Assembly: GCA_027486895.1 (NCBI GenBank)
Contig: JAIXOE010000039.1
Location: 1 to 34,260, forward strand
From: Sphingomonadales bacterium
GTDB lineage: Bacteria > Pseudomonadota > Alphaproteobacteria > Sphingomonadales > Sphingomonadaceae
Reading direction: 5' to 3'
DNA length: 34,260 nt
Under the pieces are notes generated by a model. It ran no database searches, was not told the DNA's origin, and worked only from the letters and a program-made list of their open reading frames with translations. The position numbers were made by a program, and so were the translations under genes. Position 1 is the first letter of the stretch. The number at the start of each line of letters is the position of its first letter. Positions 2,246 to 13,599 of this stretch are shown piece after piece.

Positions 2246-2485
2246 GAATATGTTCTCCCGTTCAACCCTGGATACCCCATGGGTGTAGAGTGGAGTTAGT
2301 GGCGATGTGATGCAAAACCCAACGAGATTGATTTGTCACAATAATCGATTGCATTGATAACATGGAGCGAAAGCCAGCGCTGAAGCAGGGAGTTGATGTT
2401 TGTTTCATGCGCGCGAATGCAAAAGGGGTGGCTTTACTTTTCGCGCTTCGCTAGCAGCAGAAGCGAACGTTTTTGGGAATCATTG

Positions 2486-3208
2486 ATGCGTAAACTGGTA
2501 GTTCTTCTTGCTTTGTCTTCGGCATTGACTGCTTGCGGCAGTTCGCAACTTGGCGGGGCTGGCAGTCTTTCGGACATAAAGGTAGTCGAGAGCGACGTTT
2601 TACCAGAGCCTACGCGACTTGATCTTTTTGAACAAAACCGGCCCTATCTCATTGGCCCGTTTGATAAGCTGACCATTGACGTGTTCGGTATTGAAGAGCT
2701 CAGCAAGCAAGAAGTTCAAACCGATGCGGGCGGACGGATATCTTTCCCGTTGGCCGGCATTATTGAAGCTGCCGGCAAAACGCCGGGCGAGCTTGAGGAG
2801 GAAATTGAGGGGCGGCTTCGCGGCCAATATGTGCGCGACCCGCAAGTTACCGTAAACCTCAAGGAAACTGTCAGTCAGGTCATCACGATCGACGGTCAGG
2901 TGCGTGAACCAGGTTTATACCCTGTCATTGGCAAAATGACGCTCATGCGAGCCGTGGCTATTGCCAAAGGTACTGCCGAATTTGCCAAGCTGGATGACGT
3001 GGTGATTTTTCGTACGGTAAACGGTCAGAAGATGGCCGCACTGTACAATCTGAAGTCCATTCGCCGCGGCATTTACAACGACCCTGAGGTTTTTGCGAAC
3101 GACGTGGTCGTGGTCGGTGACTCGCAGGCCCGACGCCTGTTCAAGGATGCATTGCAAGTTGCACCAACCTTGCTGACGCCGCTCGTTTACATCTTAACTA
3201 CGAACTAA
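2486..3208 (+). CDS. Polysaccharide export lipoprotein (Wza/ExoF-type, short)
   Basis: Outer-membrane auxiliary protein of 240 residues for export of exopolysaccharide or capsule. It begins with a lipoprotein signal whose lipobox is LTAC, with lipidated cysteine at residue 17. A Poly_export domain follows (about residues 50-125, starting RPYLIGPFDKLTIDVFG), then an SLBB domain (about 130-215, IDGQVREPGLYPV). The last 25 residues form a hydrophobic C-terminal segment, as expected for the membrane-spanning helix of this family. I chose ATG 2486 over the upstream ATG 2393 because it places the signal peptide at the N-terminus and has GGGA 7 nt upstream. The gene lies 150 bp before the DSF synthase gene on the same strand. 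No glycosyltransferase or Wzc kinase gene is adjacent, so the exported polymer is unknown. Confidence 0.9.
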   Translation: MRKLVVLLALSSALTACGSSQLGGAGSLSDIKVVESDVLPEPTRLDLFEQNRPYLIGPFDKLTIDVFGIEELSKQEVQTDAGGRISFPLAGIIEAAGKTPGELEEEIEGRLRGQYVRDPQVTVNLKETVSQVITIDGQVREPGLYPVIGKMTLMRAVAIAKGTAEFAKLDDVVIFRTVNGQKMAALYNLKSIRRGIYNDPEVFANDVVVVGDSQARRLFKDALQVAPTLLTPLVYILTTN

Positions 3209-3358: not shown

Positions 3359-4309
3359 ATGTCATTCCAATCCCGCGCCCGCGATGGCGCGCTAGATATT
3401 AACGCGTCCGGTTTTCCGGAGCGGAGTTTAGGTGTTCCGATCGTCGGACGCACTTTTAACGAAATTGTTGTTCGCCATGACCAGCAGGACAAGATTTTCT
3501 GGTGTTTCATGAACCAGAACGGTCGTCCAAGCTATACCTACAGCCTGGGCGCGGAAATTCAGCAAGTGCAGGACTGGGTTGCCGACAACTATGCGCTGCC
3601 GGCAAATGGCGGACCGGACGATTTGCGCTATTTTGTCTGTGGTTCCAAAACGCCCGGCGTTTACAATCTCGGCGGCGATTTACGGCACTTTGCCGAATGT
3701 ATTCGCGCCCGCGATCTCGGCGCGATGCGGAAATATGCGGAAACCTGCGTGCGCATGCAATATGTGAACAGCCAAGGATTTGGCGCGCCCATTATCACGA
3801 TTGCCCTTGTGCAGGGTGATGCATTGGGCGGCGGTTTTGAACACGCTCTTGCATTCGATATTCTTGTTGCCGAGCGCAGTGCACGCCTTGGATTACCAGA
3901 AATTATCTTTAACCTATTCCCTGGCATGGGTGCCTACAGTTTTCTTGTCCGCCGCGTAGGCCGCAAAATGGCTGAGAATTTTATTCTTGAAGGCAAAATC
4001 CACACTGCCGAAGAATTGCATGCATTGGGTATCGTCGACATTTTGGTGGAGGACGGCGAGGGTGAGGAAGCCATCGTCGATTATTGTAAACGCAATCAGC
4101 AACGATTTGCCGCCGAGCGTGCGGTGTATCTGGCCCGCCGTGTATCTTCTCCGGTGGAGATTGATGAATTGCTCAAAATTACGAACATTTGGGCCGAAAC
4201 AGCAATGTCGCTTACGGATGCCGACGTTCGAAAGATGGAACGGCTTGCTGACGCACAAGAGCGTCGGATGCAGCGCAGTATTAGAACTGTTAGCCCGCTT
4301 GGGCAGTGA
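3359..4309 (+). CDS. rpfF: DSF-type signal synthase (RpfF-like crotonase)
   Basis: Crotonase-fold enzyme of 316 residues that most resembles RpfF, which makes cis-2-unsaturated fatty acid (DSF) signals from acyl-ACP by combined dehydratase and thioesterase action. Diagnostic segments are GGDL (105-108, oxyanion region), VQGDALGGGFEHAL and GLPEIIFNLFPGMGAYSF. The two catalytic glutamates correspond to E161 (GGGFE) and E181 (GLPE), 20 residues apart, the same spacing as E141 and E161 of Xanthomonas RpfF. An ordinary enoyl-CoA hydratase does not carry the NLFPGMGAYSF segment. It is slightly longer than Xanthomonas RpfF (about 289), with an extended N-terminus. Its 3' end overlaps that of the converging histidine kinase gene by 20 bp. 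The next-door RpfC-like kinase and c-di-GMP regulator support a signalling role; the actual product chain is unknown. Confidence 0.88.
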   Translation: MSFQSRARDGALDINASGFPERSLGVPIVGRTFNEIVVRHDQQDKIFWCFMNQNGRPSYTYSLGAEIQQVQDWVADNYALPANGGPDDLRYFVCGSKTPGVYNLGGDLRHFAECIRARDLGAMRKYAETCVRMQYVNSQGFGAPIITIALVQGDALGGGFEHALAFDILVAERSARLGLPEIIFNLFPGMGAYSFLVRRVGRKMAENFILEGKIHTAEELHALGIVDILVEDGEGEEAIVDYCKRNQQRFAAERAVYLARRVSSPVEIDELLKITNIWAETAMSLTDADVRKMERLADAQERRMQRSIRTVSPLGQ

Positions 4310-6794
4310 CGCCATTCGGTGTGAGATACACATCTGATGTCAGGGCTTCTACTGCCATCGCTGCTTCCATTTCCATTTTTTGAAGATAGATGAATTTATG
4401 TGCAAGGAAGTCGGCTTCACTGATTTTTTCCAGCTGACTACATAACCGAGATAGTGACCCCGCGCCCATATTGTTCCCCGAACTTTTGAAAGCGTGCGCG
4501 CAGAAGCGGAATTCGGAAACATCTCCATCCGCAACGGCTTTACGCAACGGATCGAGCGTTTGTTCAACGTCTTCGATAAAGCCTTCAATCATCGCATTCA
4601 CAAAAGCCTGATCACCAATGGACCGAAGATATCGAATTTGATCGTCATCGATGGGAGCTGCAGCTGACGGAATTTCTCCGGAGATGGGAACGACTTTATT
4701 TAAGGGATCGATTGGTAGTGAGGTCTTAACCAACTGTGCATTTTTCTCTCCACCACAATATTTTTCGATCGTGTTGAGGAGCATATGGGCGTCCACCGGC
4801 TTGGTAATACGCATATCCATTCCAGCGTTTCGGCACTTTATTTCGGTCTCTGTGGTCGCGTCAGCGGTTACGCCGATAATCGGCAGGTGGTTGCGTCCAC
4901 CTTCAATCTGCCGCCACATCGAGCAGGTGTCGATGCCATTCAGTCGGGGCATATTGACGTCGAGCAGCAATATATCGATGCCACCCTTTTCCATTTCTTC
5001 AAGTGCTTCATCGCCGTCGGTGACCATGACGACGGAATGGCCTGCAGCTTCCAAAATGGCTGCCAAAACGTTCCGGTTTGTCCGGTTGTCGTCCGCGACC
5101 AAGATGCGCTTTGGCGTGTAGGTGGTTGATGGCTGCTGTTCATCTCCATGGGGAATGCGCATTTGCCGTGCGAAAGAGCAGCCAATGCGAATGGCACTGC
5201 GGAGTTCCGCAAAATTCGGCATGGCCGGGATAACGGAAGCAAATGCAGCCCGTAGCGCTACGTCTTCCAACTCTACAGCCTCATGTTCAGCCACAAGTAC
5301 AGGCGCAATTTCCGCGTTGGCAAAAATGGACCAGACGGTGTCTTCGGCGTCGATATGCTGCGAAACAGATTCTGCGATTAGCGCGACACTGAATTCAGCC
5401 AAATCAATTTTGGCAAGTGCCGCAACAAGTTCATCGCGACTTGTGCAAGGCACGTGGCGGACAAAGAAATTCTCTTGCGACTGCGCGTTGGCCAGCAATT
5501 CAGGCTTCATTTGACCAAATGAGAGGATTTTTACAGCATCTGCCGCATATACGTCATCAGCGGTAGACTGTTCATCAACCAATTTGATGGGTATTTGAAT
5601 ACGGAAGCTACTGCCTTGACCAATTTGGCTTTCAACAGAAATCTGGCCGTCAACCTGCTCAGTAAGCTGTTTGCAAATGGAAAGACCAAGACCTGTTCCG
5701 CCAAACCGGTTCATGACGCTGTCATCGGCTTGCTGGAACGGCTGAAAAATACGCTCACGCGCAGTTTCACAAATGCCAATACCGGTGTCCGACACAGTAA
5801 ACCAAATATGGCTCTGGTCATTTTTGATCACCAGACCGCTGTTGAGCGTTATGGATCCGGACTCTGTGAACTTTGTCGCATTGCCCACCAAGTTAAGGAG
5901 GATGTTCCGGATGACGCCATTGGGCCCTTCAATAAGCCTGTCACTCATGGGTTCTGCCTGAAGATGCAGGCTAAGCCCTTTTTCTTCCGCCCGGACAGTC
6001 ATGATATCCCGAATTTCAGTCAGCAATTCCGTAGGCCGGAATGTTGCCGACTTCACCTGCATCGTTCCCGTACCGGTTTTGGCTACATCGATCAGCTGTT
6101 CAATCAGGTGTAGCAAATGTTCGCCGGCAAGAACACTTGCCTCGACCATCTCCTTTTGCCCCCGGGGCATGTCTGACTGACTCAGGAGGTTTCCGTAACC
6201 GATGATGGCGTTCAATGGCGTTCGCAGTTCATGACTGACGCTGGCAAGGAAATAGCTTTTTGCTTTGCTCGCCTCTTCGGCTTGTTCTTTTGCATGTGAG
6301 ATTTTGCGGATGAGTGTTGAGCAATAAGCGGGAATGACGATCAACGCGAGCGCGAGCGCGATACCCAAAAATTGGTTCTGCTGCCAATATGCAGTTGAAA
6401 ACACAACGATGCCAAAGGTAGCCGTAGACAGGACCGACGCTACAAATAGCCATTTAATGCCATATCGAAAACCGTTGCCCAAAATCATCCACAAAATGAT
6501 CGGGTAAAATATCGACAAATGCTCTGGTTCGCGCAGCATGACGGCAAACGCCATCATCACGTCAAGTATAATGGCCGCAAACCAGCGCTCTTCCTGCTGC
6601 CAAATGCCATATCGTTGCATTGCGTACAGTGCCGCGTTGAATGACAAATAGGCAAAGAAGGCCGAAAATATAAGCGCATCGAACGCAAAAAAGTAACAGC
6701 CCAGGCCTGACACACTGCCCATAACGAGCCGGTTGCGGAGGATTTCCTGTTCAGGTGTCAAATCACCACGCAACTTTTTCAGAAAGCCCCTCAT
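4290..6794 (-). CDS. RpfC-like membrane hybrid histidine kinase with REC and HPt
   Basis: Hybrid sensor kinase of 834 residues. Residues 20-165 hold five or six hydrophobic membrane segments including GNGFRYGIKWLF, resembling the RpfC input module rather than a periplasmic sensor. A HisKA domain follows with H188 in SVSHELRTPLN, then a HATPase domain with N-box near 297-308 and G-boxes DTGIG and GGTGLGLS. Residues 420-545 look like a degenerate receiver lacking the acidic pocket. A true receiver is at 562-680 with phospho-acceptor D612 (LLDVNMP), and an HPt domain is at about 715-810 with H767 (AHAFKSSG). This TM-HK-REC-HPt layout matches RpfC, which senses DSF. The start overlaps the stop of the upstream regulator gene by ATGA, so the two are translationally coupled. 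DSF as ligand is inferred from the neighbouring rpfF. Confidence 0.88.
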   Translation of the reverse strand: MRGFLKKLRGDLTPEQEILRNRLVMGSVSGLGCYFFAFDALIFSAFFAYLSFNAALYAMQRYGIWQQEERWFAAIILDVMMAFAVMLREPEHLSIFYPIILWMILGNGFRYGIKWLFVASVLSTATFGIVVFSTAYWQQNQFLGIALALALIVIPAYCSTLIRKISHAKEQAEEASKAKSYFLASVSHELRTPLNAIIGYGNLLSQSDMPRGQKEMVEASVLAGEHLLHLIEQLIDVAKTGTGTMQVKSATFRPTELLTEIRDIMTVRAEEKGLSLHLQAEPMSDRLIEGPNGVIRNILLNLVGNATKFTESGSITLNSGLVIKNDQSHIWFTVSDTGIGICETARERIFQPFQQADDSVMNRFGGTGLGLSICKQLTEQVDGQISVESQIGQGSSFRIQIPIKLVDEQSTADDVYAADAVKILSFGQMKPELLANAQSQENFFVRHVPCTSRDELVAALAKIDLAEFSVALIAESVSQHIDAEDTVWSIFANAEIAPVLVAEHEAVELEDVALRAAFASVIPAMPNFAELRSAIRIGCSFARQMRIPHGDEQQPSTTYTPKRILVADDNRTNRNVLAAILEAAGHSVVMVTDGDEALEEMEKGGIDILLLDVNMPRLNGIDTCSMWRQIEGGRNHLPIIGVTADATTETEIKCRNAGMDMRITKPVDAHMLLNTIEKYCGGEKNAQLVKTSLPIDPLNKVVPISGEIPSAAAPIDDDQIRYLRSIGDQAFVNAMIEGFIEDVEQTLDPLRKAVADGDVSEFRFCAHAFKSSGNNMGAGSLSRLCSQLEKISEADFLAHKFIYLQKMEMEAAMAVEALTSDVYLTPNGVTAQAG

Positions 6795-8932
6795 TTTGCG
6801 ACTAGCCTGAACGGCTCGGCACCGTCCTTAAACAGTGAATGAAGGTCACGCACCGAAAGCGGCCGACCCAGAAGATATCCTTGAACCTCATCGCAACCTG
6901 AGGCGCGAAGCAATGTGAACTGGGCTTCGGTCTCAACGCCCTCTGCGACGACGCGCATATTCAATGCGTGGGCCAGGTGGGCGATCGTTGAAATGATTGC
7001 GCGGTCTGTGGCGGATGTCTCGATCCGCGAGATAAAAGTTTGGTCAATTTTCAAGCGCGTTGCGGGTAAGTCGCGCAAATATTGAAGAGACGAATAGCCC
7101 GTACCAAAATCGTCGATGGAAATCTGAATGCCGCCGGCGCGCAGCGTTGCCAATTGCTCATGCACCTTCTGGCTGTTGTCTATTAACAGCTCTTCGGTGA
7201 TTTCAATCGCTAGCTTGCCGCGTGGAATTGCATATTTCGCGACAAGACCCAGTATCTCCGAGCACATCGCTGCATATTGAAACTGCTTCGGCGATACGTT
7301 GACGGCTACGTGCGGGAGCTCAATGCCTTCTTCGGCAAACAAGGCAATTTGCTTACACACGGATTCGATAACCCAGGTGCCGATGCGGCCGATTAAGCCG
7401 GAGTCATTGGCCACTTTAATGAAGTCGGACGGGCACAACCGGCCCCTGACGGGGTGGTTCCAACGGACCAACGCTTCAAGGCCGACATAATTGCCTGAGG
7501 CGGTGTCGACAATTGGCTGATATTCGAGGAATAACTGATCGTTATTCAGCGCATCGCGGAGGTCGCTCTCGATACCAGCGTTCATTTGCGCAATATGATT
7601 CATGTGCGGTGAGAAAAAGCAGAAGCAATTTCGGCCCGATGATTTGGCTTCATACATGGCAAGATCGGCCAGACGCAGCAGTTCGTCGGGCGAAGTACCA
7701 TCTTCGGGGATAAGCGCGACGCCAATGCTTGCGCCGATGAGCTGCTCGACGCCTCCAATGGTATATGGCTCACCGATTTTCGCGAGTAGCTTTGTGCACA
7801 CGGCTGCCGCGCTGCTATTATCATCAAGATTTTGAAGAACGATGGCGAATTCATCCCCGCCGATACGCGCTGCAAAACCGTTGCTATCCAAGGCCGAGAT
7901 AAGGCGCTCAGCAACCTGACGCAGCAAAACATCGCCCGTTTGGTGCCCGCGGGTGTCGTTAATGACTTTAAACCGGTCAAGGTCGAGCAGCAGCAGCGCA
8001 GCAGCTTTGCCGCTTGCGTTGCTCTCATCAATGGCCGTGCGCATCCATTGTGCCAGCAATGTGCGGTTGGGAAGGCCCGTGAGCATATCATGCAATGCCA
8101 AATGCGTACGGTGCTCTTCGGCAAATTTGCGCGCAGTGATATCCAGTCCCGTGGTCAGAATACCTATGGTTTGGTTATCTTTGTTCAGCAGTGGCGACTT
8201 GTTGCAGTGGAAAATCAGCTCAATGCCTTCACTGACAAACTTCTCTTCGAAATTAGGTATCGAAATGCCCGTTTCGAGGATGACGTTATTCCGCCGCGTT
8301 TCCCGATCAACCAAGTCTGGTTCCATGATATCCGAAATGGATCGGCCGACCAGTTGTTCCGGGTCGCGTCCGAAAAGCGCGGCCTGATATGAGTTTAGAA
8401 ACAGAAACTTACCATTTCGGTCAGTTGCATTGATCAAGATCGGTGTGGTGTCGATGATTTGTTCTAGCATCGACTTACCGCTTTTGTCGTCGGCGTCAGC
8501 GCTATCCGAGCCAGTGCGGTTGTTCTCAAGTGACTGCTTGAGTTCCTGCTGCCGATAGTGCTGGCCCAAAAGCAGCAATGCGCGATCGCGAAATTCGATG
8601 TGGGAAACGGGCGTTTGCAAAAAGTCAGTCGCGCCAGCGTCTAGGGCAGTGATGCGGCATTCCCGGTCTTGCCGCGCGGTGATGATGATCGCAGGAATGT
8701 GCGCGCCAACGGTGCGTGAGCGGATTTTACTGATAAATTCTGCGCCGTTCATTTCTGGCATGCGATAGTCAACGACAAGGAGGTCGGCAGTCTCGGTCTC
8801 AAGCCATTTCAAAGCCTCAATCGCGCTGTGAAAACACTTCGCGGAGAACTCCGGACCCATCATCGCAACATATTGCGCGTAAACGCGTAAGTTGGTCGAC
8901 CTGTCGTCTACAATGACAATGCGCGCATGCAT
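6791..8932 (-). CDS. REC-PAS-GGDEF-EAL response regulator (c-di-GMP metabolism)
   Basis: Cytoplasmic response regulator of 713 residues. The receiver domain is at 1-125 (DD at 9-10, phospho-acceptor D55 in VVDYRMPEMNG, K-type end TPVS). A PAS domain lies at about 155-270, with the typical PAS-PAC ending GILTTGLDITARK. The diguanylate cyclase domain has an intact GGDEF at 358-362. The phosphodiesterase domain has EAL at 486-488 and DDFGTGYSS at 607-615. Both c-di-GMP motifs look intact, but no RxxD inhibitory site precedes GGDEF. The gene opens an operon with the RpfC-like kinase, whose HPt could phosphorylate D55. In Xanthomonas the partner of RpfC is RpfG (REC-HD-GYP); here the output is GGDEF-EAL, reminiscent of the PAS-GGDEF-EAL DSF receptor RpfR. 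Whether it makes or breaks c-di-GMP cannot be told. Confidence 0.92.
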   Translation of the reverse strand: MHARIVIVDDRSTNLRVYAQYVAMMGPEFSAKCFHSAIEALKWLETETADLLVVDYRMPEMNGAEFISKIRSRTVGAHIPAIIITARQDRECRITALDAGATDFLQTPVSHIEFRDRALLLLGQHYRQQELKQSLENNRTGSDSADADDKSGKSMLEQIIDTTPILINATDRNGKFLFLNSYQAALFGRDPEQLVGRSISDIMEPDLVDRETRRNNVILETGISIPNFEEKFVSEGIELIFHCNKSPLLNKDNQTIGILTTGLDITARKFAEEHRTHLALHDMLTGLPNRTLLAQWMRTAIDESNASGKAAALLLLDLDRFKVINDTRGHQTGDVLLRQVAERLISALDSNGFAARIGGDEFAIVLQNLDDNSSAAAVCTKLLAKIGEPYTIGGVEQLIGASIGVALIPEDGTSPDELLRLADLAMYEAKSSGRNCFCFFSPHMNHIAQMNAGIESDLRDALNNDQLFLEYQPIVDTASGNYVGLEALVRWNHPVRGRLCPSDFIKVANDSGLIGRIGTWVIESVCKQIALFAEEGIELPHVAVNVSPKQFQYAAMCSEILGLVAKYAIPRGKLAIEITEELLIDNSQKVHEQLATLRAGGIQISIDDFGTGYSSLQYLRDLPATRLKIDQTFISRIETSATDRAIISTIAHLAHALNMRVVAEGVETEAQFTLLRASGCDEVQGYLLGRPLSVRDLHSLFKDGAEPFRLVAK

Positions 8933-9040: not shown

Positions 9041-11170
9041 TCACATCATGTGCGCGTTGTTAGCGAAAGCACTAATTGCTTGATTTAATGTCGGAACTAT
9101 TTGCCCATGGATAGACCGCAGACCCGATTGCGCCGGGCGGGGTGCTATCCATCCCAATTCCTCTGCCGATGCCGATCCAATGTGTCGCGGGTTGAGATCA
9201 CATGCCGCGCTAATCTCATGGGCAAACTGGAGCCAGTTGAGCGTTTCACCATTACTGATGTGATACAGTCCATGTGCACGATCAATGATGAGGTCGAGCA
9301 CAATATCGGCAAGATGCGGTACATAGGTTGGCGAAATCATATGGTCTGGCGATGCCAAAAACGTTTCTCCGGTTTTTACCGTGGCGAAGAGTTGGTGCGC
9401 GAAATTAAAACGATCGAAAGGCGAGAAAAACGCCGCTGTTCGAACAACGAGCGGGGTCGACATTTCCAGCAGAGCCGCATCAGCGATTGCTTTGCTCTCT
9501 CCATAAACACTCAACGGGCTGGTGGCTGCGTATTCGCTGTACGGCGTATCTGATTTACCATCAAACACAAGATCGCTGGAAAAATGCGCGTTCGGGATGC
9601 CCCGCGCCTCACAGCATTGCGCGAGCCTAAGCGCTCCCAATGCGTTCGCTGACATGCAGGAATCATAAGCGCCTTCTGCTTCGTCGACCTTGACCCAGCC
9701 CGTCGCGTTGATGACGGCCCACGGGTTGTATTTTTTTAAGGCGGCATCGATGCTGCTGCAGTCATCAAGTGCCAATTGCGACCGCGACGTGGTCACTATT
9801 CGCAGGCCACGATGCTTGGCTGCACGCGTCAGAGCCTGGCCAAGCGATCCTGTTATGCCGGCAATCAACAGCGGAGCGTTAGGTGCATTATTATGTGTGC
9901 GCGTAACCGGGCGTGCCACGTGCGCGGGCGGAAATTTCAACCGGTCTTCACGTTGCCACCAGCCTGGCCCCGATACAGCGGCGGGAAGAGCGGTATTATG
10001 TGCAAGACACTTAATGGTCTCCGCAAGTCCCGTCGGCCTAATCGTTCCGCCGCGCGGATCAAAAACGCCGCCTTCGAAATCCACGAATTCTTGCGTGAGC
10101 AAGTTGCACCAACCCCGTGCCCCCATGAGTGTCCATATTGTGACCGCGACGATCGATGCGCCAGCAGCATTTAGGGCTTCGGCATTATGCCAAGCATCGC
10201 GTACCCAACGCATTTGCTCTTCACGCGTGCAACCATTGTGGCATTCCGTCAGCGCAACAGGTATTTTGTATCGTTCCCAAGCTTCGGACAACGCAGCTTT
10301 GAGGCCGTTAGTCGGGGCTGATAGGACTCGTACAGCCTCAACATCGGCAAAATCTTGTCTGCCGTTGGTCCCAATGGAATGCACTGGATAGCGCTCTATC
10401 CGATGGTCGAGAAACCGGTCGCTGGTCAGGTAATGGTTCACGCCAATGACGTCAGGCGGGCAGGGCGCGCTCGCAATTCTATCGAGTTGGTCTTTGAAGC
10501 CCAATCCACAGAGTGCCTCGTAAAAACTATGCTCCGGACCGACAAGACCGCAGAGCAAATCCCAAGTCATCCAGCGCCGTTGATTGTCATAAGCTGCTTG
10601 GTCTGACATCGCCGCCGTTGCATAAGTTATACCCAAGTCTTCGGTCTGGATCAGCTTTGCTTCCGGATTTACAAGCCGAATTTCGCGCATGGCGGCGATC
10701 GTTGCTTCAGTCTGATTTAGGAGCGCGGTCCAAAAGGAAATTTCGTTGCTGTGATGCGGATACCAATGCCCGTAAAGCGCCGAAAAACGTGCGGTGGTAA
10801 GCGGTTCGTTGATAGGCGTCCAATATTCAACCGTTGGTAATTTGCGTGCGACTTCGCGGGCATGTGCCGCCATTCCTGCAACAAAATTATCGTCAATCAG
10901 GCTGGTGTCCCTCGGTCCGCTGCCATGATGAAGCAATCCGATTATTGGCTTTATGTTATGCGATGTGAGTGAAGCGATATCCTCAGTTACTGCTTCCCAA
11001 GGTGTCGCTACGTCGTCCCAAGCGATGCGATAACGAAACGCAGTGATGCCAAGTGCTGGTAACGATTCAAGGCAGGCGGATCGCATTGCGCGTTCCGTTG
11101 GCAACAGCTGGTCCTGAAAGCGGTCGCCGACCCGATTCAGGGTGCATTCAAATCCAGCCCACATTTCCAT
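9041..11170 (-). CDS. GH1-like glycosidase fused to RmlD-like sugar reductase
   Basis: Two-domain protein of 709 residues. Residues 1-395 resemble family 1 glycoside hydrolases: the acid/base motif is NEP (E122), the nucleophile position is E309 in ALTECHNG, and VNHY and WTLMG follow family order. Residues 430-700 resemble the dTDP-4-dehydrorhamnose reductase family: Rossmann motif GITGSLG (438-444), SSDLVFDG, and the catalytic pair Y556 and K560 in YGESK. Both domains appear catalytically intact. No signal peptide is seen, so it should be cytoplasmic. The ATG at 11170 has GAGGAAA about 8 nt upstream. It is divergent from a glycosyltransferase-UDP-galactopyranose mutase fusion with an 86-bp gap, suggesting a joint job in glycan or glycolipid synthesis. 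The substrate is unknown; the GH1 domain may act as a transglycosidase or a structural partner. Confidence 0.82.
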   Translation of the reverse strand: MEMWAGFECTLNRVGDRFQDQLLPTERAMRSACLESLPALGITAFRYRIAWDDVATPWEAVTEDIASLTSHNIKPIIGLLHHGSGPRDTSLIDDNFVAGMAAHAREVARKLPTVEYWTPINEPLTTARFSALYGHWYPHHSNEISFWTALLNQTEATIAAMREIRLVNPEAKLIQTEDLGITYATAAMSDQAAYDNQRRWMTWDLLCGLVGPEHSFYEALCGLGFKDQLDRIASAPCPPDVIGVNHYLTSDRFLDHRIERYPVHSIGTNGRQDFADVEAVRVLSAPTNGLKAALSEAWERYKIPVALTECHNGCTREEQMRWVRDAWHNAEALNAAGASIVAVTIWTLMGARGWCNLLTQEFVDFEGGVFDPRGGTIRPTGLAETIKCLAHNTALPAAVSGPGWWQREDRLKFPPAHVARPVTRTHNNAPNAPLLIAGITGSLGQALTRAAKHRGLRIVTTSRSQLALDDCSSIDAALKKYNPWAVINATGWVKVDEAEGAYDSCMSANALGALRLAQCCEARGIPNAHFSSDLVFDGKSDTPYSEYAATSPLSVYGESKAIADAALLEMSTPLVVRTAAFFSPFDRFNFAHQLFATVKTGETFLASPDHMISPTYVPHLADIVLDLIIDRAHGLYHISNGETLNWLQFAHEISAACDLNPRHIGSASAEELGWIAPRPAQSGLRSIHGQIVPTLNQAISAFANNAHMM

Positions 11171-11256
11171 CCGATTTTCCTCAGTTCATCGTGAAATACG
11201 GGAACCATCGGGGGATGAATTGGTTTCATAAGGGATATGAACTTGGAATAAATAAC

Positions 11257-13599
11257 ATGTTAATCACCGCTACAGACGTAAACAAAATAAATCATAATGA
11301 TAAACCTGTTTTGATTTGTTTTAGCCATCTACGATGGGAGTTTGTATTCCAGCGGCCGCAACATTTAATGTCGCGTTTTGTAAATAATTTTAAGGTTATT
11401 TATTGGGAGGAACCAAGTTTCATTATTGGTTCTCAACCACTGCTCGATTTACAGGTCTGTAGGGACACTGGCGTCACTGTCGCCACGCCGCAGTTGCCTG
11501 AAGGCTTATCGGAACAACAACAGGAAATCGCGCTGCGTGGATTGCTTGATAAGCTCGCCTTGTCTGGCGTGAACAAATTGGTCCGCTGGTATTATACCCC
11601 AATGATGCTGCCATTCTCCCGGCATTTGAAGGCCTCCGCTGTAGTATATGATTGTATGGATGAGCTGAGCGCGTTCCGCTTCGCGCCTCCAGCTCTACTT
11701 CAACGTGAGTCAGAATTGCTTGAGGAGGCTGATTTGGTCTTCACTGGCGGCAAGAGCTTGTACGAAGCAAAGCGGAACCGTCACACTTCGGTCCACTGCT
11801 TCCCGTCCAGCGTCGACGTTGCGCATTTCGCAGCTGCGCGGACGCATTCCCAAGACCCCGCTGACCAAGCGGACATCGCGTTCCCGCGCCTCGGCTATTA
11901 CGGCGTCATTGACGAACGTATTGATCTTGAGCTGTTGTCACAGGTTGCAGATGCACGGCCCGAGTGGAACTTCGTGATGATCGGGCCGGTCGTTAAGGTG
12001 TCCGAAGAAGAACTGCCACGTCAGCCCAACATTCACTGGCTTGGTGGCAAATCTTACAAGCAATTGCCCCAATATCTTGCTGGCTGGGATGTTGCGCTGA
12101 TGCCATTCGCCATCAATGAATCTACACGGTTTATCAGCCCCACCAAAACACCCGAGTATCTCGCCGGAGGTAAGGTAGTTGTTTCCACACCAGTGACCGA
12201 TGTCGAAGCTGGTTATGGCCAGTGCCCGCGTGTATGCATAGCATCGTCACCTGAAGGCTTCGTCGCCGCGTGCGAGATGGCGCTTATTTACGCCAAAACA
12301 GGCGAAGGTGCCAAGGTGGCAGATGCCATGATCGCCGCATCAAGCTGGGACAAAACACAGGCGGAGATGGCGAGCCTTATTGCCGATGTGCGGTCGTCGG
12401 ATTTGCGGGTTTATCCGATTACGGCCCCCTTGTCATGGCCAGCACCCGCGCAGAAGCATTATGATTGGGTCGTTGTCGGCGCTGGCTTTGCCGGATCGGT
12501 GATGGCTGAACGGCTCGCCGCTGGATCTGGCTACAAGGTGCTTGTCGTCGATCGCCGCCCGCATATCGCCGGGAATGCGTTTGATGAACGGAATGAGGTG
12601 GGACAGCTGTATCACAAATATGGCCCGCATATTTTTCACACAAACTCGGCCGATGTCTTTGAGTATCTGTCGCGCTTCACCAAATGGCGCAAATATGAAC
12701 ATCGTGTCTTAGCCAGCGTCGATGGTCAGTTGGTGCCAATCCCTATCAACCGGACGACCATTAACACTTTATACGGACTCGACTTGCGAACCGATGACGA
12801 GGCTGAAGCGTGGCTTGCCGCAAGGGCCGAGCCAGTAGACACGATTGAGACATCTGAAGATGTCGTGGTGTCTGCAATCGGGCGCGAATTGTATGAAAAG
12901 TTCTTCCGTGGTTACACCCGCAAACAATGGGGTCTTGACCCAAGCGAGTTGGACAAATCGGTGACTGCGCGCGTTCCTACCCGAACGAATGCCGATGACC
13001 GATATTTTACCGATAAATATCAAGCCATACCGGCGGATGGATATACCAAGATGTTTGAAAACATACTGGATCATCCAAAAATCGACGTCATCACCGGTGC
13101 CGATTTTGCGGAAATCAAGGATGCCTATTCCTATGATCGTCTCGTTTATACAGGACCAGTCGATGAATATTTCGGCTTTTGTTATGGTGCGCTGCCATAC
13201 CGCTCGCTTCGTTTCGACCATGCGGTAGTCGAACAGGAAAATTTCCAGCCTGTTGCAACGGTCAATTATCCCGATGAAGCGACGCCCTATACGCGCATTA
13301 CTGAATATAAGCATTTTACCGGCGATACTGGCGGCGTAACGAGCATTACAACCGAATATCCAGCCGCCGAAGGTGATCCCTATTACCCAATCCCGCGTCC
13401 GGAAAATCAGAAGCTTTATAAACGCTATGAAGCATTGGCGATGGCTGAAGAAAGCACGTTGTTTGTGGGTCGGCTTGCCACATATAAATATTACAACATG
13501 GATCAGGTTGTGGGGCAGGCTCTCGCCACCTGGCGTAAACGCGTAGTTGCTGAGCAGGATACGATATCTGCGGTATCGCCGGTTCAGGCGGTAGGATAG
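11257..13599 (+). CDS. Glycosyltransferase fused to UDP-galactopyranose mutase
   Basis: Fusion protein of 780 residues from ATG 11257. Residues 1-375 form a GT-B-type glycosyltransferase that begins with FSHLRWEFVFQRPQHLM and ends with a donor-binding segment containing SPTKTPEYLAGGKVVV. Residues 401-775 form a flavoprotein UDP-galactopyranose mutase (Glf): FAD motif GAGFAGSVMAERL, then GNAFDE, KYGPHIFHT, FRGYTRKQW and a C-terminal KYYNMDQVVGQAL. Glf converts UDP-Galp to UDP-Galf, so the linked transferase may add galactofuranose. An in-frame ATG at 11215 with an upstream GGGA is an alternative start; I preferred 11257 because it lies directly before the conserved fold. Both candidate ribosome binding sites are weak. 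The first 150 bp are strikingly AT-rich compared with the rest. A strong hairpin follows the stop codon. Confidence 0.85.
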   Translation: MLITATDVNKINHNDKPVLICFSHLRWEFVFQRPQHLMSRFVNNFKVIYWEEPSFIIGSQPLLDLQVCRDTGVTVATPQLPEGLSEQQQEIALRGLLDKLALSGVNKLVRWYYTPMMLPFSRHLKASAVVYDCMDELSAFRFAPPALLQRESELLEEADLVFTGGKSLYEAKRNRHTSVHCFPSSVDVAHFAAARTHSQDPADQADIAFPRLGYYGVIDERIDLELLSQVADARPEWNFVMIGPVVKVSEEELPRQPNIHWLGGKSYKQLPQYLAGWDVALMPFAINESTRFISPTKTPEYLAGGKVVVSTPVTDVEAGYGQCPRVCIASSPEGFVAACEMALIYAKTGEGAKVADAMIAASSWDKTQAEMASLIADVRSSDLRVYPITAPLSWPAPAQKHYDWVVVGAGFAGSVMAERLAAGSGYKVLVVDRRPHIAGNAFDERNEVGQLYHKYGPHIFHTNSADVFEYLSRFTKWRKYEHRVLASVDGQLVPIPINRTTINTLYGLDLRTDDEAEAWLAARAEPVDTIETSEDVVVSAIGRELYEKFFRGYTRKQWGLDPSELDKSVTARVPTRTNADDRYFTDKYQAIPADGYTKMFENILDHPKIDVITGADFAEIKDAYSYDRLVYTGPVDEYFGFCYGALPYRSLRFDHAVVEQENFQPVATVNYPDEATPYTRITEYKHFTGDTGGVTSITTEYPAAEGDPYYPIPRPENQKLYKRYEALAMAEESTLFVGRLATYKYYNMDQVVGQALATWRKRVVAEQDTISAVSPVQAVG

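What the first reader, a model, noticed from the sequence alone, without database searches (positions are those of the whole stretch)
3359..8932. DSF quorum-sensing cassette whose output is REC-PAS-GGDEF-EAL instead of HD-GYP
An RpfF-like synthase with the catalytic glutamate pair at the Xanthomonas spacing converges on an operon of an RpfC-like kinase (multi-TM, HK, REC, HPt) and a regulator with REC, PAS, GGDEF and EAL domains. Known DSF systems use either RpfC with RpfG (REC-HD-GYP) or the one-protein receptor RpfR (PAS-GGDEF-EAL). This locus seems to join both: a phosphorelay into an RpfR-like c-di-GMP module. That it is a working DSF circuit is inference; the domain architectures are seen directly.
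Basis: partly seen in the sequence, partly recalled or inferred. Interest (0 to 1): 0.82.

Follow-up and report, generated by a model that had tools for sequence, protein, structure and literature searches.

The report
DSF signalling cassette with swapped output
A three-gene bacterial cell-to-cell signalling cassette, known so far with one kind of output enzyme, is found here with a different one in the same slot, and relatives carry yet another, so the output end appears to be exchangeable.

Summary
The trio is real: rpfF (3359-4309 +) converges on an RpfC-type kinase (4290-6794 -) and a REC-PAS-GGDEF-EAL regulator (6791-8932 -). It is conserved as a unit in Sphingorhabdus and near genera. 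Searched against six genomes with classical rpfFCG loci, the regulator's receiver finds the RpfG receiver first in 6 of 6, and the kinase's membrane sensor finds RpfC first in 6 of 6. So this is rpfF-rpfC-rpfG with the HD-GYP of RpfG replaced by PAS-GGDEF-EAL. It is not RpfR: no FI domain, BDSF-contact residues not kept, RpfR model failed, GGDEF-EAL apart from RpfR in a tree. In most other alphaproteobacterial loci that I read, the slot holds REC-PAS-histidine kinase, and outputs changed more than once. Most likely this is a fatty-acid-sensing phosphorelay driving an EAL phosphodiesterase. A real caveat: of five RpfC residues needed to sense DSF, the window kinase keeps one, so the ligand may differ. 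Searches of an open-access library showed no paper on this layout. All function is inferred.

The parts
3359..4309 (+). rpfF-like DSF-family synthase (crotonase, 316 aa; Glu pair E161/E181)
   Evidence: ORF; NF006452 351.5 bits over cut-off 177, RpfF model NF053515 215 bits; best PDB matches 7zq7 (crotonase family), RpfF 3m6m, 5fus (putative enoyl-CoA hydratase), RpfF 6dgn; inside the 100/100 RpfF clade
4290..6794 (-). rpfC-like hybrid kinase (834 aa): membrane sensor, HisKA, HATPase, REC, HPt
   Evidence: sensor module finds RpfC first in 6 of 6 genomes
6300..6794 (-). N-terminal sensor region plus membrane helices of the kinase (residues 1-165); of five DSF-contact positions only the Glu (E15 here, E19 in Xanthomonas) is kept
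6069..6263 (-). HisKA domain, H-box SHELRTP from residue 187
5586..5912 (-). HATPase domain
4767..5105 (-). kinase receiver domain, D612; among PDB chains matched over the receiver alone, RpfC REC 3m6m_D is best (69.8 bits; next RcsC 65.7)
4425..4592 (-). HPt domain, HAFKS from residue 767
6791..8932 (-). rpfG-slot regulator REC-PAS-GGDEF-EAL (713 aa)
   Evidence: conserved partner
8588..8920 (-). RpfG-type receiver domain, D55
8126..8452 (-). PAS (PAS_4) domain, shared with REC-PAS-kinase regulators
7628..8098 (-). GGDEF domain, motif GGDEF from residue 358
6860..7564 (-). EAL domain; all seven EAL catalytic patterns searched are present
2393..3208 (+). neighbouring polysaccharide export protein (Poly_export, SLBB); linkage seen only in near relatives, a possible target of the circuit
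   Evidence: found beside rpfF in 5 of 20 genome-contig loci (L039, L041, L056, L057, L058)

Best explanation
This is an rpfFCG-type fatty-acid quorum-sensing cassette in which the HD-GYP output of RpfG has been replaced by PAS-GGDEF-EAL. RpfF makes a cis-2-unsaturated fatty acid (inferred). The membrane sensor of the RpfC-like kinase detects it or a relative of it (inferred). Phosphate passes His to Asp to HPt-His within the kinase and then to D55 of the RpfG-type receiver of the regulator (inferred from homology and intact residues). This switches the EAL phosphodiesterase and lowers c-di-GMP, as HD-GYP does in RpfG (inferred). Shown here: the architecture, conservation as a unit, the homology of synthase, sensor module and receiver to RpfF, RpfC and RpfG in particular, and the different output end.
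For: Same order and orientation in the six classical rpfFCG loci read (L089-L092, L094, L095). RpfF clade 100/100 in a 68-row tree. 37 of 37 regulator receivers form one group (SH-aLRT 98) apart from 27 other receivers of the window genome and 40 kinase receivers. Sensor-module profile: best hit in 6 of 6 is RpfC, 95-135 bits; the only match outside RpfC has 18.7 bits. Window protein: D55, GGDEF and all seven EAL patterns present; window kinase: H-box, N-box, G-box, REC Asp and HPt His patterns present. No HD_5 match in the window genome.
Against: Of the five RpfC residues next to the membrane that PMC5391125 reports as needed to sense DSF (R15, D17, S18, E19, Q22), the window kinase keeps E19 only, and 0 of 13 sphingomonad kinases compared keep Q22. 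The GGDEF pattern is present in 15 of 16 regulators, so net cyclase activity is possible. The NCBIfam RpfF cut-off is not met (215 against 550), although synthases beside four RpfR-type genes score only 179-184. Absence of HD-GYP does not explain the swap: 6 of 14 other cassette genomes have HD_5. No expression, ligand or enzyme data.
Confidence: 0.72

Rival explanations
1. Hybrid of RpfC with an RpfR-like receptor: the PAS-GGDEF-EAL part is RpfR-derived, or its PAS at least is a second DSF sensor.
For: Same order PAS-GGDEF-EAL; N at the position of RpfR N202 in 12 of 13 sphingomonad regulators. The PAS matches PAS_4, and a PAS_4 domain senses DSF in the Xanthomonas kinase RpfS (PMC4504480, passage), so sensing by this PAS is not excluded.
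Against: REC in place of the FI domain; 0 of 30 PAS rows keep all five contacts, R187 is E in 28 of 30 (distant alignment, gaps uncertain); RpfR model not met; GGDEF-EAL apart from RpfR; the PAS is shared with REC-PAS-kinase regulators.
Confidence: 0.08
2. Same cassette, but the signal is not DSF or BDSF: another fatty acid made by this RpfF branch and read by a rebuilt sensor.
For: Sensor residues changed in the sphingomonad branch (0 of 13 keep all five; L118 keeps four) and in L097 and L099, while 13 of 15 kinases of REC-PAS-kinase cassettes keep all five.
Against: E19 kept in 40 of 40 kinases; RpfF catalytic residues conserved; binding sites can drift with the ligand unchanged.
Confidence: 0.3
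3. Net output is synthesis, not breakdown, of c-di-GMP (GGDEF active, EAL regulatory).
For: GGDEF and FKxxND patterns in 15 of 16 regulators.
Against: All seven EAL patterns in the window protein; L168, which lies apart in the RpfC tree, lacks the GGDEF pattern but keeps six of the seven EAL patterns.
Confidence: 0.15
4. The synthase is an ordinary fatty-acid-metabolism crotonase and its neighbours are unrelated two-component genes.
For: The only NCBI model whose cut-off it passes among the 25 listed is named crotonase/enoyl-CoA hydratase family protein.
Against: RpfF clade, conserved trio, RpfC-specific sensor and RpfG-specific receiver.
Confidence: 0.03

Closest known systems
RpfF-RpfC-RpfG system of Xanthomonas (PMC4504480, passages seen)
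   Same: Synthase, membrane hybrid kinase with REC and HPt, RpfG-type receiver, gene order and orientation
   Different: Output is PAS-GGDEF-EAL, not HD-GYP; four of five DSF-contact residues of the kinase are changed
RpfF-RpfR system of Burkholderia and Cronobacter (PMC6361424, passages seen)
   Same: rpfF convergent with its partner gene; a regulator ending PAS-GGDEF-EAL
   Different: Here the regulator has a receiver and no FI domain, PAS contacts are not kept, a separate kinase stands between, GGDEF-EAL is not sister
REC-PAS-histidine kinase regulator beside rpfF-rpfC in other Alphaproteobacteria (found here; I found no name in print)
   Same: Same cassette, same REC and PAS front
   Different: HisKA-HATPase instead of GGDEF-EAL

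Membership tests
RpfF (DSF synthase) | Falls in the RpfF clade rather than among ordinary crotonases | tested here: met
   100/100 with synthases of rpfFCG and rpfR loci, against only 4 crotonases of the own genome
RpfF (DSF synthase) | NCBIfam RpfF equivalog cut-off (550 bits) | tested here: not met
   215 bits; 3 of 398 phylum genomes pass, and synthases beside four RpfR-type genes score 179-184, so the cut-off is narrow
RpfF (DSF synthase) | Two catalytic glutamates 20 apart | tested here: met
   E161, E181; not discriminating
RpfF (DSF synthase) | Makes a cis-2-unsaturated fatty acid | not testable with these tools
   needs LC-MS
RpfC | RpfC-type membrane sensor, HisKA, HATPase, REC, HPt | tested here: met
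RpfC | DSF-contact residues R15, D17, S18, E19, Q22 | tested here: not met
   window has D, T, P, E, I; residues from PMC5391125 passages
RpfC | REC binds RpfF | not tested
   interface residues of 3m6m were not compared
RpfG | RpfG-type receiver domain | tested here: met
   best hit in 6 of 6 genomes, one group
RpfG | HD-GYP output | tested here: not met
   no HD domain in the protein, no HD_5 match in the genome
RpfR | N-terminal FI domain | tested here: not met
   REC occupies residues 5-115; FI found in RpfR L101
RpfR | BDSF-contact residues S169 N172 Y183 R187 N202 | tested here: not met
   window E R I E N; 4 of 4 RpfR rows S N Y/F R N
RpfR | Model NF007474 cut-off 782 (that this model stands for Gmr/RpfR is recalled) | tested here: not met
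   416 bits against 1052-1295 for L101, L103, L104, L108

The most novel reading that the evidence does not exclude
The rpfF-rpfC pair with an RpfG-type receiver is a general fatty-acid signalling front end whose output domain is exchanged in evolution (HD-GYP, GGDEF-EAL, or a second histidine kinase), and in the sphingomonad branch both ends were rebuilt: a new c-di-GMP output and a rewritten ligand site, giving a DSF-family signalling language not described before.
Probability: 0.3. Interest if true: 0.8.

Novelty: new variant of a known kind. Interest (0 to 1): 0.64.

Why it matters
The 2015 review names two core ways of reading DSF signals, RpfC with RpfG and RpfR, plus accessory sensors (RpfS, BCAM0227, PA1396); a 2026 review sets out the same two (PMC4504480, PMC13220807; passages). 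This locus is a further layout, lies in Alphaproteobacteria, for which my searches of the library listed no DSF study, and has one class of c-di-GMP phosphodiesterase replaced by an unrelated one behind the same receiver. With the REC-PAS-kinase form it makes testable how a phosphorelay keeps its input while its output is swapped, and it offers natural variants of the RpfC ligand site.

Tried and rejected
RpfR ancestry of the output was tested by family model, PAS contacts and a GGDEF-EAL tree, and dropped. A single origin of the GGDEF-EAL output is rejected on the RpfC tree (AU p = 0.008), as is a single origin of the kinase output (p = 0.0002); GEsph + L097 + L099 without L151 is not rejected (p = 0.11). 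The two trees differ in part: L097 and L099 join the sphingomonads in the RpfC tree but L151 alone in the RpfF tree, where the sphingomonad group has only 94/66. That the swap follows absence of HD-GYP is weak: 8 of 14 other GGDEF-EAL-cassette genomes lack HD_5 and 6 have it; of 15 kinase-output genomes 6 lack it. The EPS neighbour as a conserved part was dropped (5 of 20 loci). Of the plasmid records matched (16, 14) I read five: rpfF lies beside an EAL gene in L229, L231 and L232, beside no signalling gene in L233, and L230 has no gene table; no further trio. Structure prediction and fold search were not used.

Limits. Trees are quick searches; the receiver tree has 126 columns for 104 rows. 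The crotonase outgroup was four rows. Row L159 was left out of the PAS contact count; one background receiver, L170, was dropped, and 7 of 37 receiver matches of the own genome gave no locus. Pattern counts miss some rows: kinases H-box 40 of 40, G-box 37, REC Asp 36, HPt 34, N-box 27; EAL patterns 14 to 16 of 16, and in L099 and L119 one pattern hit a wrong place. Loci read: of 62 phylum hits 20, besides the window, G068 and G041; of 102 family hits 41 besides the window; of 24 class hits 20, besides the window and L096. One search was poor: 1,812 papers, the 25 listed without rpfF. Paper lists were capped (20 of 23, 30 of 41, 12 of 19). On checking, two papers from the lists that could have held sphingomonad rpf genes did not in the passages shown (PMC9040811, PMC10304161).
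Full report
What is there. The window (contig C60 of a 2.87 Mb genome) holds an RpfF-like crotonase at 3359-4309 (+), converging with a hybrid kinase (4290-6794, -) and a regulator (6791-8932, -). Pfam gives ECH_1; HisKA-HATPase-REC-Hpt; and REC-PAS-GGDEF-EAL, all above cut-off. The 4-base overlap of regulator and kinase genes suggests one transcript. The nearest named relatives of the synthase are Sphingorhabdus and similar sphingomonads, the closest a Sphingomonadaceae MAG at 95%.

Conservation. Of 298 genomes of the family, 102 have a synthase at E <= 1e-20. I read 40 of those besides the window and G041 later. All 11 with a synthase at least 51% identical carry the full trio in the same order and orientation. 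Of the other 30, seven have rpfF convergent with a GGDEF-EAL gene and no kinase, and 23 show neither a kinase nor an EAL gene by my profiles. Of 20 genome-contig loci 16 show the full trio and four are cut by a contig end (L043 and L050 in or at the kinase gene, L053 in the regulator, L054 after rpfF). So the trio is a stable unit of a few genera, not of sphingomonads at large; two other genomes of the window's own genus (G137, G192) gave no synthase match.

The synthase belongs to the RpfF clade. In the PDB it matches a crotonase-family chain (7zq7) first and RpfF 3m6m second. With synthases of rpfFCG and rpfR loci it forms a 100/100 clade against four crotonases of its own genome. The NCBIfam RpfF cut-off is not met, but the synthases beside four RpfR-type genes (G334, G537, G608, G565; the genes pass NF007474) score lower, 179-184, than the window protein.

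The kinase is of the RpfC type. A profile of the sensor module from nine kinases of GGDEF-EAL cassettes, searched in six genomes with rpfFCG loci, finds the rpfC gene first in 6 of 6 (95-135 bits); G674 has two copies of the module in one ORF; the only match outside rpfC has 18.7 bits.

The regulator is RpfG with another output. A profile of seven receivers from GGDEF-EAL regulators finds the rpfG receiver first in 6 of 6 of those genomes, 117-129 bits, with 76.3 bits for the next best of 302 matches. In a tree of 104 receivers all 37 regulator receivers (GGDEF-EAL, kinase and HD-GYP types) form one group, SH-aLRT 98, apart from 27 other receivers of the window genome and 40 kinase receivers (quick search, few columns). 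The window genome has no HD_5 match, but 6 of 14 other cassette genomes do.

It is not RpfR. RpfR has an FI domain and a PAS that holds BDSF through S169, N172, Y183, R187 and N202 (PMC6361424, passages). Here a receiver stands in place of FI; of 30 PAS rows none keeps the set, 28 have E at R187, and only N202 has a counterpart, in 12 of 13 sphingomonads (gap placement between distant PAS domains is uncertain). GGDEF-EAL modules of the cassette group together weakly (SH-aLRT 88, one background row inside) and apart from RpfR. The PAS is of the PAS_4 type, as is the DSF-sensing PAS of Xanthomonas RpfS (PMC4504480, passage), so a sensing role for it stays possible.

The slot is exchangeable. Of 385 sampled Alphaproteobacteria genomes 24 have an RpfF-clade synthase at E <= 1e-40. 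Of 20 read, 14 have rpfF convergent with an RpfC-type kinase followed by a REC-PAS-histidine kinase regulator (L153-L166); L151 has the kinase and such a regulator in the opposite orientation; L168 has REC-PAS-GGDEF-EAL; L149 is cut in the kinase; L152 has no RpfC-type kinase but a divergent REC-PAS-HisKA_2 protein; L150 and L167 show no partner. Pfam confirms REC-PAS-GGDEF-EAL in L097, L099 and L168 and REC, PAS and HisKA in the 11 of 15 kinase-type regulators run (L154, L158, L162, L166; L151, L153, L155, L157, L159, L160, L161); HATPase is found in 10 of these 11 (not L151), and the PAS of L159 is marginal. L156, L163, L164 and L165 were judged by my own profiles only. The PAS domains of the two regulator types align throughout except L159. 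On the RpfC tree the GGDEF-EAL set and the kinase set are each rejected as one clade (AU p = 0.008 and 0.0002), so outputs changed more than once, by fusion or by exchange of regulators.

The ligand question. PMC5391125 (passages) shows that Xanthomonas RpfC binds DSF through a 22-residue N-terminus and that R15, D17, S18, E19 and Q22 are needed. All five are kept in 13 of 15 kinases of the kinase-output type, 4 of 6 of the HD-GYP type and 1 of 3 of the loci without a neighbouring rpfG. Of 13 sphingomonad kinases none keeps all five: E19 is kept in 13, Q22 in none, and L118 keeps the other four; the window has D, T, P, E, I. L097, L099 and L151, which join them in the RpfC tree, have lost Q22 too, while L168 keeps all five. 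Either the site drifted or the ligand changed.

Mechanism. Inferred: synthase product, sensing by the kinase, phosphorelay to D55, control of an EAL phosphodiesterase. All seven EAL patterns are present in the window; the GGDEF pattern is missing in one of 16 regulators, L168, which keeps six of seven EAL patterns. This favours breakdown of c-di-GMP as the conserved activity, without excluding synthesis. A possible target is exopolysaccharide: an export gene lies next to rpfF in the window and in five near loci, and RpfC sensing mutants of Xanthomonas make less EPS (PMC5391125).

Literature. The lists of searches (some capped) showed no paper on rpf genes in sphingomonads or on an RpfC cassette with GGDEF-EAL or kinase output; the 2015 review names two core modes and accessory sensors, the 2026 review the same two modes (passages). 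The library lacks most subscription papers, so absence is not proof.

Noticed in passing
L120-L123, L125, L128, L129, L100; named plasmid loci L229 (Methylobacterium sp. NMS14P), L231 (Sphingomonas parapaucimobilis): rpfF convergent with a GGDEF-EAL gene; in the three read closely (L120, L229, L231) the N-terminus holds several hydrophobic segments and a GYxAGxxxRNAGRP motif, with a PAS_7 in L229 only: possibly a membrane-bound one-protein receptor, another layout I found no report of.
   Followed up: partly
L153-L166, also L151: rpfF-rpfC cassettes whose regulator is REC-PAS(-PAS)-HisKA-HATPase, a phosphorelay into a second histidine kinase of unknown target.
   Followed up: partly
L152:10249-11787: rpfF without an RpfC-type kinase nearby but with a divergent REC-PAS-HisKA_2 gene, a kinase family other than in L153-L166.
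   Followed up: partly
L124, L130, L142, L150: Solitary sphingomonad rpfF genes lie next to ORFs that look like asparagine-synthase-type and glycosyltransferase genes of exosortase polysaccharide clusters (names from memory, ORF starts).
   Followed up: no
L105, L106, L107: Small genomes of one family (f38) have rpfF-rpfC but no rpfG-type gene next to them, although HD_5 matches occur in these genomes (5, 15 and 1).
   Followed up: no
L089:6300-9032: The rpfC ORF of 910 aa holds two sensor modules in tandem, as if an rpfH-like module were fused in frame.
   Followed up: no
window 9041-11170 (-) and 11053-13599 (+): Two divergent two-part sugar genes: RmlD-type reductase behind a region with a sub-threshold glycoside hydrolase 1 match, and glycosyltransferase with UDP-galactopyranose mutase; their mechanical ORF starts overlap by 118 bases.
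   Followed up: no
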